This document shows, piece after piece, positions 14,090 through 20,027 of a stretch of 45,487 bases of DNA. How positions within the stretch are numbered: position 1 is the stretch's first letter; each line of letters opens with the position of its first letter. This DNA is from Phycisphaerales bacterium (GTDB taxonomy: Bacteria; Planctomycetota; Phycisphaerae; UBA1845): the NCBI GenBank assembly GCA_013140575.1, contig JABFSN010000086.1, positions 1 to 45,487 on the forward strand, read 5' to 3'. The position numbers were made by a program, and so were the translations under genes. Under the pieces are notes generated by a model, which was given only the letters and a program-made list of their open reading frames with translations, searched no databases and was not told where the DNA came from.

Positions 14090-16348
14090 TCACGGTGGAT
14101 TGACGCCGGTCAATTCGCGGACGGTGGCATAGACCGGGGCGCCATGGGCGTCGAATGGGTCCACGAGGACCAGACGGTCGAGAACCGGTGACTTGCGTTG
14201 CAGTGCCTGGTGGCATTGTTCGCAGCCGAGCGATGGTTCCATGTTGTAGCCCCACGCATTTTCTTTCGCGAGCACGTTGTGGTCCAGACCGAAGACCTCG
14301 TAACCGGTGACGGCAATGCCGGTGTCTTTGTATTCGAATGAGTTGACGCCTTCCGTGGACGCGGCGTCTTCGTACCAGACGCGCGGCCCCTTGATCAGGA
14401 CGGGTCTGGATGCCACCGTCCGGCCGTATGTATCGATGCCCTTCAAGGCGGACATATAGACGAGCATTTCCTCCGGCCGATTGATCTCGAGTTTGCCGTC
14501 ACCATTGTCGTCGGTCACGCCGGGCAACGGCAAGGCGCCGGTGATCCGGCGTAGACGCCATAGTATGACGGGTTGAATAATGTCGTCCGACAAATCGTCG
14601 GGCGTGCCGTTCTGATCCCAGTCGCCCCAATAGACCGCGATTTCCTGTTTCTGCGGAAACAGCCGTTGGGCGCCGTCGCTGTCGGTCTTGAACACCAGCG
14701 AGGGATACCACGTGCTCTTGTCCGGATCCGCCGGATCCAGCGGGTTGGCCGACAGAAGATCATCCGTGAAATAGAAGATGTCGTCGCCGGTGACGGAACG
14801 GTCGGTCACGATCACCGCGCGTTTCAACGCGAAGGGTACGTGACAGGCCTGGCACGACAACGTCACCATCGGACCCCGGCCATCGCTCTCCTGGTTGTGG
14901 ACGAACGTCTCTCCGGGCACGTCCGGGGCGTCGGGATGGCGAATGAGATTGGGTTGGCCGTTGATTTCGGTCAGGCGGCATTCGCGGCAGGAGCGGAAGC
15001 CCAGCGCCCAATCCAGTTCGTTGCGGAACTGGGTATAGGGCGAATTGCCTTTGCCGAAATTGTGGTTGATGTCGCCGGGGTGGCATAGGTTGCAGGTGTC
15101 GGCGTCATCGTCGGCGACGTCGTTCGCGGCGACATCGTCGTTTCGGTTGGTAAATTTGCGATAGTGAATATCGCGCTCGTCGAACCAGACCGCGCCGCGC
15201 TTGTTCTGGAAGCCGCCGGGCAGGTGGCAGCCCCAGCAGATTCGGTCGCGCGGCGGACGGACAAGAAAATCACGGTCCAGCGCCAACGCATCGTCGCCCG
15301 CCGGGACAAGCTCGCCCCGGTCCACGCCGACGGCGTAATCGAGCTGCAACACGGGCGGTGCGACGCCCACGTCCAGGCGCGTAAACCACCCCTGACCGGC
15401 CGTGGCCGCCGCGGCGAACGCGGGCACGGAATGGCCGACGTCATCGACCAGTTCGGTCGTGGTCGCCAGGATCGCGCCCCGCCATTCGCGGTGCATGTCC
15501 AGCCCGTCGACGCCGGTGCGATGGCGGCGGTGACACAGGAGGCAGTCCGGTTCGGCCACGCCGGTGACATCCCATGGCGCGGCGTGAAGCGATCCGTCAT
15601 CGTCGTCGATCAGGGCGTAGTCGCCGTCCAGCAGGACGTCCTGCGGTTGCAGGCCGAGAAGTTCGTAGCCGAACAGACCGGTCGATTCGTCGTAATATCG
15701 TAAACCGTCGCGGTCGAATTCCAGCCCGCCGCCGCCCGCGTGACACCCGCCGCAGTGCGACGCCCCATAGAACGCGGTCATGTCCATTTCGGATTCGTTC
15801 ATGTTGTGCTTGCCGGCCGTCTGGCGATTCAATCCGCCGCCGCCGCCGGACCAGCGTCCGAACATGCCCGCCGAGCGCACCCACCATCGGCCGTCGCCCA
15901 TGAAGTCGTCGTTCATGACCATGTGGCCGTCGGCGTCCGTCCGACCCTGTTGATGAATGAAGCCGTTGGATATTTGATGGACGTCGTGGCACCCGGATGC
16001 GCGTCCGCATGTTTGCCGGCCGCTGTACGGCCGGGTGGAGTCGACGGTGATCGCGTTCCCGAGCGCGTCCTTCAGCATGATGGGCAGGTGCCCCTGGATG
16101 CGTTGATAGGCCGCGAAGTCGATCAGGTCGACGTCGGCATCGCCGTCCATGTCGAACACCTCGCGGCAGATCGCGATCGGCGGTTCGATCCCGGGGCCTG
16201 AAACGGTCGCGCACAGTTTGAGAAAAACATAATCGAAGCGGTTGATGAATCCGTTCTCGTCGAAATCGCCGGTTCCCAATGGCAGGGCGGCGGCGATTGG
16301 AACCAGCGACAGAACGACGACCGCCAGCACGGTCGAGCGGCAAGACAT
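14090..16348 (-). CDS. Multiheme cytochrome c with N-terminal dockerin repeats
   Basis: This 752-aa secreted protein has a signal peptide (STVLAVVVLSLVPIAAA), then two dockerin-type calcium motifs (GDFDENGFINRFDYVFL, about 26-43, and FDMDGDADVDLIDFAAYQR, about 66-84). A long heme-binding region follows. Canonical CxxCH sites are CGGCH 199, CLLCH 269, CWGCH 371, CNLCH 419, CQACH 499 and CEQCH 709; two aberrant sites are CGRASGCH (114-121, CX5CH) and CRECR (454-458, no His). Eight attachment-like sites recall octaheme oxidoreductases such as tetrathionate reductase, but homology is not shown. Further DxDxDG-like calcium loops occur near 576 and 613. ATG 16348 is set by AAGGAGGG six bases upstream. 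It diverges from the electron-transfer operon at 16670. Confidence 0.85.
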   Translation of the reverse strand: MSCRSTVLAVVVLSLVPIAAALPLGTGDFDENGFINRFDYVFLKLCATVSGPGIEPPIAICREVFDMDGDADVDLIDFAAYQRIQGHLPIMLKDALGNAITVDSTRPYSGRQTCGRASGCHDVHQISNGFIHQQGRTDADGHMVMNDDFMGDGRWWVRSAGMFGRWSGGGGGLNRQTAGKHNMNESEMDMTAFYGASHCGGCHAGGGGLEFDRDGLRYYDESTGLFGYELLGLQPQDVLLDGDYALIDDDDGSLHAAPWDVTGVAEPDCLLCHRRHRTGVDGLDMHREWRGAILATTTELVDDVGHSVPAFAAAATAGQGWFTRLDVGVAPPVLQLDYAVGVDRGELVPAGDDALALDRDFLVRPPRDRICWGCHLPGGFQNKRGAVWFDERDIHYRKFTNRNDDVAANDVADDDADTCNLCHPGDINHNFGKGNSPYTQFRNELDWALGFRSCRECRLTEINGQPNLIRHPDAPDVPGETFVHNQESDGRGPMVTLSCQACHVPFALKRAVIVTDRSVTGDDIFYFTDDLLSANPLDPADPDKSTWYPSLVFKTDSDGAQRLFPQKQEIAVYWGDWDQNGTPDDLSDDIIQPVILWRLRRITGALPLPGVTDDNGDGKLEINRPEEMLVYMSALKGIDTYGRTVASRPVLIKGPRVWYEDAASTEGVNSFEYKDTGIAVTGYEVFGLDHNVLAKENAWGYNMEPSLGCEQCHQALQRKSPVLDRLVLVDPFDAHGAPVYATVRELTGVNPP

Positions 16349-16669
16349 GAAGCCCTCCTTAACCGGCACTGGTTGACCGGCCCGAACGGGAAGCCGCGTA
16401 GACGTGAATGCGGTCCCCCCACCCTCCTCGTGCCGCTAATCACCCGGCAAGTTGCGGACCAAACCGCACTTTTTGGACATCTGGTGCATGGTGATTACAT
16501 CGAATAACCAGTTCACAAATAACGCGACAGTTCAACAGCAGTTTGTTCGTTGGCACGCGGCTTGCCCGATGAAACCCGGTTGCCATTGGGGCCTCGGCGG
16601 GGGGCCGGAACGGACATCGGAGCTTCGCCGTCGTCCTCTGGTACGGAGTGCAATGGAGGGGGTTCGACG
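16349..16669. other. Divergent control region of the redox locus
   Basis: This 321-base gap separates the minus-strand multiheme gene from the plus-strand ferredoxin operon. It contains a sigma-54 type element at 16551-16565 reading rightward. The segment 16455-16550 is clearly AT-richer than its surroundings, as expected for an upstream activator region, with only a weak 5-base palindrome CTGGT (16481-16485) / ACCAG (16507-16511). No second sigma-54 site was found for the leftward gene. Confidence 0.6.
16551..16565 (+). promoter_or_regulatory. Sigma-54 (RpoN) -24/-12 promoter
   Basis: TGGCACG-CGGC-TTGC matches the RpoN consensus at every conserved position, including the invariant GG-N10-GC spacing (GG at 16552-16553, GC at 16564-16565). 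The predicted start is near 16577, leaving a leader of about 93 bases before the ferredoxin gene. Transcription would need an AAA+ enhancer-binding activator, which is not encoded in this window. The match is exact to the core, but a chance match in GC-rich DNA cannot be fully excluded. Confidence 0.72.
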
Positions 16670-17623
16670 ATGAAATCGAGTGCAAACCGTCGCTGGTTCT
16701 TGAAATCGCTGGCGTTGGCGGGCGCGCCCGTGGTGTGTCCGACGGTCGAAGCCGACGAGACCGACGGCCACGAATCGGGTGCGACGAGTTCCGGCACGAT
16801 GGGCGTGCTGATGGACATTACTCAATGCGTCGGATGCCGCAAATGCGAATATGCGTGCGGTCAGGCGGCCGGTTTCAACGTTCCGCCGATCGAGACGTTT
16901 GATGATCGGGCGGTGTTCGAAAACGACCGACGCCCCGGGCCGGCGAGTTACACGGTAGTGAACCGTTATGCAGCCGGCGAATCCCCGGAACGGTTTGTGA
17001 AGGTCAATTGCCTGCACTGCAACGAGCCGGCCTGCGCGTCGGCTTGTCTGGTCGGCGCGTTGCAAAAAACGGCGACGGGGGCCGTGGTTTACGATCCGTG
17101 GAAGTGCATGGGGTGCCGCTACTGCATGGTGGCCTGCCCGTTTCAGATTCCGGCGTACGAATACGACAACGCGTTCACGCCACAAGTTCGCAAGTGCACG
17201 ATGTGCGCGGACCGGATTGCGAACGGGGCTCGCGTGCCGGCGTGCGTGGAAATCTGTCCCAAGGAATGCCTCATCTACGGGCGCCGCGATGAATTGCTGG
17301 CGTTGGCGCATGACCGCATCCGCCAACACCCCGATCGGTACGTGGAACACATTTACGGGGAGCACGAGGCCGGCGGGGCGAGCTGGCTGTATTTGTCCGA
17401 TCGGCGATTCGCGGACTTGGGGTTCGTCGCCGTGCCGGCCGCCGCGCCGTCGCACCTGACCGAGACACTTCAACATGCCGTTTTCAAACACTGGGCGCCT
17501 CCGGCGTGTTTGTATGGGTTGCTGGGTGCGATCATGTGGCTCTCGCGGCGTCCGGACGACGAGCCGAAAACGTCGCCCGCTGTTCCGACGATGCCGCCCC
17601 GTTTGAAAGGGGCGGTATCATGA
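16670..17623 (+). CDS. Tat-exported ferredoxin-like subunit with four 4Fe-4S sites (HmcB/DsrO/NrfC type)
   Basis: The 317-aa protein starts with a twin-arginine signal (RRWFLKSLALAGAP). Sixteen Cys residues in four sets can bind four [4Fe-4S] clusters: CVGCRKCEYAC (53-63), CLHCNEPACASAC, CMGCRYCMVAC, and CTMCADRIANG...CVEIC. A C-terminal hydrophobic segment (ACLYGLLGAIMWL) may anchor it to the membrane. Proteins of this type relay electrons between a NrfD/HybB quinone-binding subunit and periplasmic cytochromes. A GGAGGGGG site precedes ATG 16670, rejecting the longer upstream frame. The stop overlaps the next start (ATGA), so the three genes form one operon behind a sigma-54 element. Confidence 0.93.
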   Translation: MKSSANRRWFLKSLALAGAPVVCPTVEADETDGHESGATSSGTMGVLMDITQCVGCRKCEYACGQAAGFNVPPIETFDDRAVFENDRRPGPASYTVVNRYAAGESPERFVKVNCLHCNEPACASACLVGALQKTATGAVVYDPWKCMGCRYCMVACPFQIPAYEYDNAFTPQVRKCTMCADRIANGARVPACVEICPKECLIYGRRDELLALAHDRIRQHPDRYVEHIYGEHEAGGASWLYLSDRRFADLGFVAVPAAAPSHLTETLQHAVFKHWAPPACLYGLLGAIMWLSRRPDDEPKTSPAVPTMPPRLKGAVS

Positions 17624-18813
17624 CCTCGCACGAACACGCCGCCCCCGTCGCGCGTCGCCTTTTGACTCCGGGCGTTCTAATGCTGCTGGCACTGGTCGGC
17701 GCGGCGATGATCTTTGCCATCATCCGGTTTGCGTTCGGGCTGTCGGTGGCCACCAACCTCGACCAGCAGCACCCGTGGGGCATCTGGATCGCGATTGACG
17801 TCGCCACCGGAGTCGCGCTGGCCGCGGGCGGATTCACGTCGGCGGCATTGGTCTACGTCTTCAACCGCAACCGGTTCCATTCACTGGTCCGCCCAGCGCT
17901 GTTGACCGCGATGCTGGGGTACACATTCGTCGGAATGGGGCTGATGGCGGATCTGGGGCGCTATTACAACATCTGGCATCCGGCCCTACCGTCAATGTGG
18001 CAGGGCAATTCCGTACTGTTCGAAGTGGGCATGTGCGTGATGTGCTATCTGACCGTGCTCTATATCGAGTTTTTGCCCCTGGTGTGCGAACGATTCATCG
18101 GCGATACCGGCCGTCCGAGACTGGCGCGACTCTGCGCGCGGATCGATCGCGTCGTTCGTCGAACGATGTTCGTCTTCATTCTTGCCGGAGTCGTGTTGTC
18201 CTGTCTGCATCAGTCGTCACTTGGCCATCTGATGGTCATCGCGCCGACCAAGATGCACGCCCTGTGGTACACGCCGTTGTTGGGTCTCTTGTTTCTGTTG
18301 TCTGCCGCCGCCGTCGGGTTTCCCATGATTATCGTCGAGTCGTTATGGTCGTCCTGGTCCTTCAGCCGACAGCCCGAAATGCACTTGCTCCGCGAGCTGG
18401 CCCGGTTCATTCCGCCGCTGCTCGGCGTCTATCTGGCATTCATCATCGGAAACATGGCCGTTCGGGAGACCTACGGCGAGCTCCGGACGGTATCACCCCA
18501 GACTGTATGTTTTGGAATCGAAGTGGCGGCGGGCGTCGTGCTTCCGTTGGTGATGCTGCTGATGGATCGCGTGCGGCGATCGCCGCGACTGCTGCTGACG
18601 GCATGCCTGCTGATCGTGTTCGGTGTGGCGTTCAATCGCATCAATGTATTTCTGGTCGCGTATCAGCCGCCCTTTGCCGAACGAGCGTATTTTCCATCCG
18701 TTGGCGAGATCGTGGTCACGACGGGGTTGATGGCCGGTCTGGTGCTCGTCTATCGCGTCATCGTCACGTATCTGCCTGTGCTGACCCCGACTTCGAGAAG
18801 TGTTGCCACATGA
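17620..18813 (+). CDS. HybB/HmcC/NrfD-family integral membrane quinone-interacting subunit
   Basis: This 397-aa protein is almost entirely membrane-embedded, with about ten hydrophobic helices. The HybB-type signature HPWGIWIAIDVATGVALAAGGF near residues 48-70 and the following FVGMGLMADLGRYYNIWHP are typical of hydrogenase-linked and Hmc-complex cytochrome-b-like subunits, which bind menaquinone but not heme. In a complex it would pass electrons between the quinone pool and the ferredoxin subunit. ATG 17620 overlaps the ferredoxin stop, and its own stop overlaps the start of the 13-heme cytochrome gene (ATGA at both joints), which strongly suggests a stoichiometric complex. Confidence 0.93.
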   Translation: MTSHEHAAPVARRLLTPGVLMLLALVGAAMIFAIIRFAFGLSVATNLDQQHPWGIWIAIDVATGVALAAGGFTSAALVYVFNRNRFHSLVRPALLTAMLGYTFVGMGLMADLGRYYNIWHPALPSMWQGNSVLFEVGMCVMCYLTVLYIEFLPLVCERFIGDTGRPRLARLCARIDRVVRRTMFVFILAGVVLSCLHQSSLGHLMVIAPTKMHALWYTPLLGLLFLLSAAAVGFPMIIVESLWSSWSFSRQPEMHLLRELARFIPPLLGVYLAFIIGNMAVRETYGELRTVSPQTVCFGIEVAAGVVLPLVMLLMDRVRRSPRLLLTACLLIVFGVAFNRINVFLVAYQPPFAERAYFPSVGEIVVTTGLMAGLVLVYRVIVTYLPVLTPTSRSVAT

Positions 18814-20027
18814 ACGCCGCGTCGACGAAACCCGGTCGCCGGTCCACTGGAGCGACGAAGCCCAACGCCCACGGGCCGGTCTGTTTCGTGGCGGGCATCC
18901 TCTTCGCCACATGGGCGGTCTACGCTCCCGCGGCGCAAGACCGGCCGCCCAATGTCGGCGGCGACTGTGCGGCTTGCCACTCCTGCGACGATCCGTCGCC
19001 GCAAGCACGCTGTCTGCGAGCGTGCGCGCGACCCGCCCACGAACCGAAGCCGACATCGTTGACCAACGAATTCGCTCCGCACATAGTCATACTTGGCGAG
19101 CTGGCCGACCGCTATCTGCCCGTTCCCTTCGACCACGCCGGACACGCGGCCATGGCCAATATGACCCGCGGCTGCGTCGTCTGCCACCACCATACGCCAC
19201 AAGGGCAGGAGCACCCGTCCTGCAAATCCTGTCACGCTCTTGAACCCGGGACCGGCGACATTCATATGCCGGGACTGAAGGGGGCATATCACCGCCAGTG
19301 CATGAACTGCCACGTGGAATGGAGCGGGGATACGCACTGCAGCGTTTGTCACCAGCCCAGAACCGGCGGGACAACATCTCTCAAGTTATCGACGCCGAGT
19401 AAAGACGATATCATCGGCCAAATGCACCCGCCGATCCCGGAGCCGGAAGTCCGGCAATACGAGATCGCCCGCGACGGCATTGAACCGAGCCGGGTTCTGT
19501 TCCGTCACAAACGGCACATCGACGCATACGGTCTGCGGTGCGCGGACTGTCATCACGAGAACAGTTGCGTCCGCTGTCATGCCCGCTCGAACAGCGATGC
19601 GCCGCCGGTAAAGCCGCTAAACGAACACCATCAGCCGTGTTTCGCGTGCCACGAAAACGACGCCTGCGAGTCCTGTCACTACGAGACCGAACAGCCTCCG
19701 CCGGCGATGTTCGACCATGCGGGCACGCGCTGGCCGTTGACTCGATATCATCGGGAAGCGGGATGCCGCGATTGTCACACCGTAGTTCCCTACCAGTCGC
19801 CGAAAACGGAGTGCAACGAGTGTCACAATGATTGGGCGCCGGGCACGTTCGACCACGCGGTCACCGGACAGACGCTTGACGCCTTGCATGTCTCCATCGA
19901 CTGTGCGGAATGCCACACCAATCGTCAATTCGATCGCCCTCCGACGTGCGGGGCATGTCACGACGCCGATAGCGGCATCAGCTTTCCGGATCGCCGCCCG
20001 GGACCGGTGAACTCGAATAACCCCTGA
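18810..20027 (+). CDS. Thirteen-heme periplasmic cytochrome c (HmcA/c3-like)
   Basis: The 405-aa protein has a signal-anchor-like N-terminal helix (GPVCFVAGILFATWAVYAPAA) and thirteen CxxCH motifs: CAACH, CVVCH, CKSCH, CMNCH, CSVCH, CADCH, CVRCH, CFACH, CESCH, CRDCH, CNECH, CAECH and CGACH. Scattered His residues in FDHAGH and FRHKRH contexts are the usual distal ligands of bis-His c3/c7-type hemes. A Cys-rich, heme-free insert (CDDPSPQARCLRACAR) follows the first heme. It probably forms the periplasmic wire of the complex with the two upstream subunits. ATG 18810 overlaps the upstream stop. The stop lies 20 bases from the end of the convergent biotin-carrier gene, with no clear terminator between them. 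Confidence 0.93.
   Translation: MNAASTKPGRRSTGATKPNAHGPVCFVAGILFATWAVYAPAAQDRPPNVGGDCAACHSCDDPSPQARCLRACARPAHEPKPTSLTNEFAPHIVILGELADRYLPVPFDHAGHAAMANMTRGCVVCHHHTPQGQEHPSCKSCHALEPGTGDIHMPGLKGAYHRQCMNCHVEWSGDTHCSVCHQPRTGGTTSLKLSTPSKDDIIGQMHPPIPEPEVRQYEIARDGIEPSRVLFRHKRHIDAYGLRCADCHHENSCVRCHARSNSDAPPVKPLNEHHQPCFACHENDACESCHYETEQPPPAMFDHAGTRWPLTRYHREAGCRDCHTVVPYQSPKTECNECHNDWAPGTFDHAVTGQTLDALHVSIDCAECHTNRQFDRPPTCGACHDADSGISFPDRRPGPVNSNNP

What the first reader, a model, noticed from the sequence alone, without database searches (positions are those of the whole stretch)
14090..16348. Dockerin repeats fused to a multiheme cytochrome with two aberrant heme sites
Two calcium-binding dockerin motifs follow the signal peptide directly, and six CxxCH sites are joined by CX5CH (114-121) and CRECR (454-458), where the proximal His is replaced by Arg. 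Dockerins usually tether enzymes to cohesin partners; here one could tether an electron carrier or reductase to an external scaffold. The CRECR site may have lost its heme or bind one in an unusual way, perhaps at an active site.
Basis: partly seen in the sequence, partly recalled or inferred. Interest (0 to 1): 0.72.

Follow-up and report, generated by a model that had tools for sequence, protein, structure and literature searches.

The report
Dockerin-tethered octaheme cytochrome with lost heme-site
A secreted bacterial protein built to carry eight heme groups wears a docking module where its relatives have membrane anchors; those relatives hold selenocysteine or cysteine at a spot this branch has lost, and one of its heme sites looks broken in this copy alone.

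Summary
In detail: window 14090-16348 (-) encodes a 752-aa secreted protein with a dockerin-like EF-hand pair, six CxxCH, one CX5CH and one CRECR. Homologues change its meaning. CRECR is private: 31 of 31 homologues compared have CxxCH there, one transition away, so this copy has most likely lost one covalent heme, or the base is wrong. CX5CH is the long end of a family habit: the first linker is X2, X3, X4 or X5, at least 10 changes on the tree. The dockerin marks the whole clade (17 of 17 own N-termini).

The core is an octaheme cytochrome whose nearest solved fold is Shewanella tetrathionate reductase (Z 7.1), far below that family's sequence cut-off. Relatives form three clades: in-frame TGA (7 of 7) with a SECIS-like hairpin (6 of 7 meet the model), evidently selenocysteine, lipoprotein-like N-termini; Cys at that place, membrane tail, arsenic-type neighbours (6 of 6); and the dockerin clade with neither (Ser167 here). 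In the window the gene is divergent from an Hmc-like FeS/NrfD/13-heme operon. Substrate unknown. Selenocysteine in a tetrathionate-reductase-type octaheme cytochrome is already listed in a 2026 review.

The parts
14090..16348 (-). CDS, 752-aa secreted dockerin-octaheme cytochrome
16088..16282 (-). dockerin-like EF-hand pair (residues 23-87), loops at 16267-16232 and 16153-16118
15986..16009 (-). heme site 1, CX5CH (CGRASGCH)
15848..15850 (-). Ser167: the column that is TGA (Sec) or Cys in the two related clades
15740..15754 (-). heme site 2, CGGCH (would match the catalytic heme 2 of octaheme tetrathionate reductase if the eight sites correspond in order; inferred)
15530..15544 (-). heme site 3, CLLCH
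15224..15238 (-). heme site 4, CWGCH
15080..15094 (-). heme site 5, CNLCH
14975..14989 (-). degenerate heme site 6, CRECR (TGC CGC GAA TGC CGC)
14840..14854 (-). heme site 7, CQACH
14210..14224 (-). heme site 8, CEQCH
16349..16669 (.). divergent intergenic region between the cytochrome and the Hmc-like operon
16670..17623 (+). HmcB/HybA-like iron-sulfur protein (HmcB 321.8 bits, cut-off 420; HybA 227.6, cut-off 263)
17620..18813 (+). HmcC/HybB-like NrfD-family membrane protein (HmcC 269.8 bits, cut-off 550)
18810..20027 (+). class III-type cytochrome, 405 aa, 13 CxxCH

Best explanation
The protein is the planctomycete, dockerin-bearing branch of an octaheme c-type cytochrome family that folds like octaheme tetrathionate reductase. 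Shown by sequence: secreted, EF-hand pair first, eight heme sites in register with its relatives, the first with a linker of changing length, the sixth reduced to CXXCR here only. Inferred: hemes sit on seven sites (site 1 attached despite its five-residue linker, site 6 empty or holding only loosely bound heme); electrons come from the quinone pool through the divergent Hmc-like FeS/NrfD/13-heme complex, run along the heme chain and meet a substrate at heme 2; the dockerin replaces the lipid or membrane anchor of its relatives and holds the protein to a cohesin-like or other surface partner. Because this branch has lost the Sec/Cys of its relatives, its chemistry is probably different or it only carries electrons. 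The substrate is not known.
For: Site table over 32 sequences; ML tree with three clades (Cys 100/100, Sec 98/96, dockerin clade 87/87); nearest fold 1sp3 Z 7.1 over 311 residues, alone above the two dockerin rows at about 3, Foldseek E 0.0019, probability 0.94; Hmc-like operon; anchors differ by clade; 9.2 kDa of core per heme with eight hemes, in the range that PMC7096707 calls peptide-replete and all catalytic (passage); CXXCR variants failed in E. coli Ccm and in HCCS (PMC4158909, passages); all five conserved candidate distal histidines are kept in the query (H395, H429, H471, H484, H690).
Against: No profile of the family reached 1sp3 in the PDB sequences at E<=10; Z 7.1 is under the tool's own caution line of 8. 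The Hmc-like operon is not beside any of the 19 other neighbourhoods searched (E<=1e-4), so the link is one instance. The maturation tests cited used System I and System III, whereas both assembly proteins found in this genome look like System II, and PMC4158909 also reports a yeast CXXCR variant that could be made from a plasmid. Cohesin-like hits are weak. Residues 129-172 of the model have pLDDT under 50.
Confidence: 0.6

Rival explanations
1. CRECR is a sequencing or assembly error; the true protein is an ordinary octaheme member of its clade.
For: One transition (CGC for CAC); 31 of 31 homologues keep His; the five candidate distal His are intact, as they would be if the heme were still there; the genome is a draft of 268 contigs.
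Against: The frame is intact over 752 codons, the rest of the motif and neighbourhood is normal, and nothing in the sequence marks the base as doubtful.
Confidence: 0.3
2. Site 6 binds a heme with Arg beside it, attached by a dedicated lyase, at an altered redox centre.
For: Two System II-type assembly proteins in the genome; Lys at such a site and very long linkers are handled by dedicated systems elsewhere (PMC7096707).
Against: No homologue shares it (0 of 31); neither assembly gene lies in the window contig; published CXXCR variants mostly failed.
Confidence: 0.08
3. The EF-hand pair is only a calcium-stabilised spacer common in secreted proteins of this clade and tethers nothing.
For: At least 18 such domains in the genome (150 of 193 candidates scored) against few and weak cohesin hits; the copies merged as second halves of fused proteins lack it.
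Against: It sits where the TGA clade has a lipoprotein-like start, and the Cys clade has a membrane tail, which fits an anchor.
Confidence: 0.35

Closest known systems
Octaheme tetrathionate reductase (OTR, TIGR04315; PDB 1SP3, Shewanella oneidensis)
   Same: Eight heme sites; nearest solved fold over residues 86-752; TGA and Cys relatives hit TIGR04315 weakly (22-46 bits). A 2026 review lists TIGR04315 as a GenBank-annotated selenoprotein family (PMC13188914, table passage seen).
   Different: Cut-off is 375 bits; the query itself has no TIGR04315 match at E<=10. N-terminal dockerin, no Sec/Cys at the column discussed, longer protein, CXXCR at site 6.
Dockerin type I (PF00404)
   Same: Two 12-residue EF loops about 38 residues apart, weak profile and fold matches.
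   Different: Borderline score; on a cytochrome, not a glycoside hydrolase; partner not shown.
MmcA (methanogen heptaheme cytochrome, TIGR04314)
   Same: OTR-related electron conduit lacking one OTR heme (passages of PMC11024163); weak hits of relatives.
   Different: MmcA lacks the second site with its Lys; here it is the sixth site, in one copy only.
NrfA (CXXCK) and MccA (CX15CH) sites
   Same: Departures from CXXCH in multiheme enzymes (PMC7096707).
   Different: Those are conserved and catalytic; CRECR is private to this copy.

Membership tests
Octaheme tetrathionate reductase (TIGR04315) | Score over the curated cut-off of 375 bits | tested here: not met
   Query: no match at E<=10. Relatives scanned: 0 to 46 bits.
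Octaheme tetrathionate reductase (TIGR04315) | Eight c-type heme sites | tested here: inconclusive
   31 of 31 homologues have eight CXnCH; the query has seven plus CRECR.
Octaheme tetrathionate reductase (TIGR04315) | Fold of 1SP3 | tested here: inconclusive
   Z 7.1, rmsd 5.3, 311 aligned; Foldseek E 0.0019.
Octaheme tetrathionate reductase (TIGR04315) | Lys-ligated catalytic heme 2, other seven bis-His | not testable with these tools
   Feature as stated in PMC11024163 (passage); no model coordinates or hemes available here.
Dockerin type I (PF00404) | Over the Pfam cut-off with two EF loops | tested here: inconclusive
   Two loops present; 18.5 bits as a protein, 23.2 in the genome search, cut-off 22.9.
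Dockerin type I (PF00404) | Binds a cohesin | not testable with these tools
   Only weak cohesin-like domains in the genome.
Selenoprotein (the TGA clade, not the query) | Conserved in-frame TGA with Cys homologues | tested here: met
   7 of 7 genes at one column; Cys in 6 of 6.
Selenoprotein (the TGA clade, not the query) | bSECIS within the published limits | tested here: met
   6 of 7 (6 bp, loop AGUU, 22 nt after TGA, about -10 kcal/mol); G173 -3.9. Controls: 2 of 19 dockerin-clade rows and 0 of 6 Cys rows reach -7.5. Limits from PMC13188914.
Selenoprotein (the TGA clade, not the query) | SelB and tRNA-Sec in the genome | tested here: inconclusive
   SelB over cut-off in 5 of 6 TGA genomes (not G288); tRNA-Sec at 70 bits or more in 4 of 6 (G288 and G322 only at about 45; 88% and 83% complete).

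The most novel reading that the evidence does not exclude
A branch of octaheme cytochromes outside the named tetrathionate-reductase family carries a genetically encoded selenocysteine between hemes 1 and 2, close to the catalytic heme; sister branches hold Cys (membrane-bound, arsenic-linked) or neither. The window protein belongs to the third branch, which lost the Sec/Cys and exchanged a lipid anchor for a dockerin, so that a former selenoenzyme core became a docked cytochrome.
Probability: 0.5. Interest if true: 0.75.

Novelty: new variant of a known kind. Interest (0 to 1): 0.55.

Why it matters
It joins three things seldom seen together: a docking module on an octaheme cytochrome, an anchor that changes with the clade on one catalytic core, and a Sec/Cys/neither split at one column. 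The split offers a natural series for asking what a selenium or sulfur ligand near a multiheme active site does. The first heme site also shows that the spacing of a c-heme motif can change again and again (at least 10 times on this tree) while its place in the fold stays.

Tried and rejected
CRECR as a conserved unusual heme site: rejected, 0 of 31 homologues share it. Sequence link to 1SP3 by profiles A2, A3 and A4: nothing at E<=10. A second structure, of the TGA relative L074 with A3: pLDDT 50, not used. Rfam on seven TGA loci: 0 matches. Covariation of the hairpin: one of six pairs changes on both sides, 26 of 500 shuffles as high, weak by itself. Conserved neighbours of the query: none of the neighbouring window genes tried recurs as a block beside the homologues (two hits of one window gene in L047 only). 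A hydrazine-synthase-like partner in the own genome: only partial matches, best E 3.4e-9. The upstream secreted partner has paralogues in the own genome (best E 5e-81) but not on this contig. Papers: selenocysteine + multiheme cytochrome (6 listed), Planctomycet + selenoprotein + cytochrome, octaheme tetrathionate reductase, OTR active-site terms, heme + CXXCR, dockerin + Planctomycet + cytochrome, selenoprotein families, selenoprotein + octaheme: none listed describes this family by title or start of abstract; abstracts and full texts beyond those named in the report were not read.

Rows left out of the 32-row table: L009 (identical to L050), L078 and L107 (same locus as L010), cut or overlapping fetches of the same genes (L018, L026 and the like), L007 (another cytochrome), and L100 of G140 (one distant match over model positions 3-409, no TGA). 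Two C-tail lengths (G084, G435) were read out of frame by my coordinates; one search replaces them.

Full report
WHAT IS THERE. Window 14090-16348 (-) is a real gene: ATG at 16348 behind AAGGAGG, third-position GC 0.79, 752 aa. After a hydrophobic start come two EF loops (28-39, 66-77), then CX5CH (114-121), CxxCH at 199, 269, 371, 419 and 499, with CRECR at 454-458 between the last two, and CxxCH at 709. Chance is no explanation (0.0145 CxxCH per shuffled copy, at most 2 in 2000).

HOMOLOGUES. The core was found in 15 of 100 related genomes, 11 of 51 of its family, own included, 9 of 392 sampled over the phylum, own included, and 6 of 149 around one TGA-bearing genome. Named records among them are planctomycete metagenome assemblies. 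I compared 32 distinct genes: 19 of the window's family (own plus 18 from 10 genomes), 7 with an in-frame TGA from 6 genomes, 6 with Cys (rows left out are told under Tried and rejected).

THE TWO ODD SITES. Sites 2-5, 7 and 8 are CxxCH in 32 of 32. Site 6 is CxxCH in 31 of 31 homologues and CRECR in the query alone; in the nine loci printed the homologues use CAC or CAT, the query CGC. Five conserved candidate distal histidines are all still there in the query, so the loss, if real, is recent. CXXCR variants failed in the E. coli Ccm system and in HCCS, although a yeast variant was reported from a plasmid (passages of PMC4158909). The two assembly proteins found in this genome carry only PF01578 and a WGWDPKE motif that I recall as CcsA/System II; none of those tests used System II. 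Site 1 is X2 in 8, X3 in 3, X4 in 7 of the other 18 family rows, X2 in 7 of 7 TGA rows, X4 in 4 and X2 in 2 of 6 Cys rows, X5 only in the query (three family rows read CHAH, where the exact register is open). With the motif columns left out of the tree, at least 10 changes of length are needed. Longer linkers are known to be matured (PMC7096707, section 3 part 1), and NCBIfam has a CX4CH model (seen). So CX5CH probably carries heme; CRECR probably does not.

DOCKERIN. 17 of 17 family members with their own N-terminus have at least one EF loop by a strict pattern (10 of 17 have two); the other two rows are second halves of fused double proteins. Profile and fold evidence is borderline. The genome has 18 dockerin matches over cut-off (150 of 193 candidates scored) and 5 cohesin matches over cut-off, of which one of three rescanned frames held. 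The relatives carry something else: 7 of 7 TGA rows have a Cys right after the hydrophobic start as in lipoproteins (3 of 7 by a strict pattern; no predictor run), and 6 of 6 Cys rows have a 224-323-residue tail with 3 to 8 hydrophobic segments, b561-like by Pfam in L062. Three kinds of anchor on one core make tethering the likely job of the dockerin; this is inference.

WHAT KIND OF CYTOCHROME. The AlphaFold model (pLDDT 72; residues 129-172 under 50) has one solved neighbour, 1SP3, octaheme tetrathionate reductase (Z 7.1, 311 aligned over 86-752; Foldseek E 0.0019); the next rows are two dockerins at about Z 3. TIGR04315 is missed by the query and scored 22 to 46 bits in those relatives that match it with E<=0.01, cut-off 375, with an 18-bit match in one family member; L010 gave none. 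I therefore call it OTR-like and do not file it as OTR. In OTR the second heme is catalytic and Lys-ligated (passage of PMC11024163); if sites correspond in order, site 6 is not the catalytic one.

THE SEC/CYS COLUMN. In 7 of 7 genes of one clade the core is broken by one TGA at the same codon, in GMYGKW-TGA-PP; 6 of 6 Cys-clade rows have Cys there; the 19 window-family rows have neither, Ser167 in the query. The codons after TGA form a hairpin that meets the published bacterial SECIS limits (PMC13188914, passages) in 6 of 7, weaker in G173; 2 of 19 family rows and 0 of 6 Cys rows reach the energy limit. Leu within it is TTG in 7 of 7, although TTG is 2 to 10% of Leu codons in six of the genes and 28% in the seventh (the genes are related, so I give no p-value). 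Covariation is one pair only. SelB is over cut-off in 5 of 6 of these genomes, a strong tRNA-Sec in 4 of 6; the own genome has both (in the controls SelB was over cut-off in 2 of 14 and tRNA-Sec in 5 of 14). The tree keeps the three groups apart (dockerin clade support 87/87, moderate). Sec in an OTR-type cytochrome is not new as such: the 2026 review lists TIGR04315 and ExtKL among selenoprotein families. I found no paper on this branch in nine searches of the held library.

NEIGHBOURS. In the window the gene is divergent from an Hmc/Hyb-like FeS protein, an NrfD protein and a 13-heme class III cytochrome, all below the NCBIfam equivalog cut-offs; a plausible electron source, seen only here. 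Other family members sit beside hydrazine-synthase-like genes in four loci, beside a secreted 831-903-aa protein directly upstream in four, and near polyferredoxin-TPR membrane proteins in three. The Cys clade sits among arsenic-type genes in 6 of 6.

VERDICT. Observation confirmed; interpretation partly supported. The dockerin tether stands as a good guess, the special CRECR heme does not, and the wider family, with its Sec/Cys/neither split and changing anchors, is the more interesting object.

Noticed in passing
L074-L077, L079, L082, L010 (TGA codons at L074:1681, L010:8232 and the like): OTR-like octaheme genes with one conserved in-frame TGA followed by a SECIS-like hairpin; lipoprotein-like N-termini.
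   Followed up: yes
L059, L060, L061, L062, L109, L110: Cys-type relatives with a hydrophobic C-terminal tail, in 6 of 6 cases near ArsR, ArsP, SBF-type (Acr3-like, recalled), ArsA/ArsD or ArsM-like genes.
   Followed up: partly
L045:3-6151, L046:11002-15085, L052:811-6043, L054:7584-14158: Beside dockerin-clade cytochromes: fusion proteins related to hydrazine synthase beta-gamma (177.5 bits in L046, cut-off 1250), HZS-alpha-like genes in L045 and L054, and Peripla_BP_6 proteins.
   Followed up: partly
L053:5745-10229, L058:14365-18825: Two-fold fused versions of the cytochrome, 1494 and 1486 aa with 14 and 15 CxxCH.
   Followed up: no
L045:8658-11153, L046:15419-17941, L057:4756-7380, L058:11694-14405: Secreted partner without Pfam match in the two members scanned to 0 families (L045, L046), directly upstream of the cytochrome; L045's ends in EF-hand repeats like a dockerin.
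   Followed up: partly
L007:1555-3243 (own genome, G000:C249): A second multiheme cytochrome of this genome with dockerin-like EF loops, there at the C-terminus.
   Followed up: no
G288 and G322: Genomes with TGA-bearing genes but no strong tRNA-Sec, and in G288 no SelB over cut-off; both are incomplete drafts.
   Followed up: no
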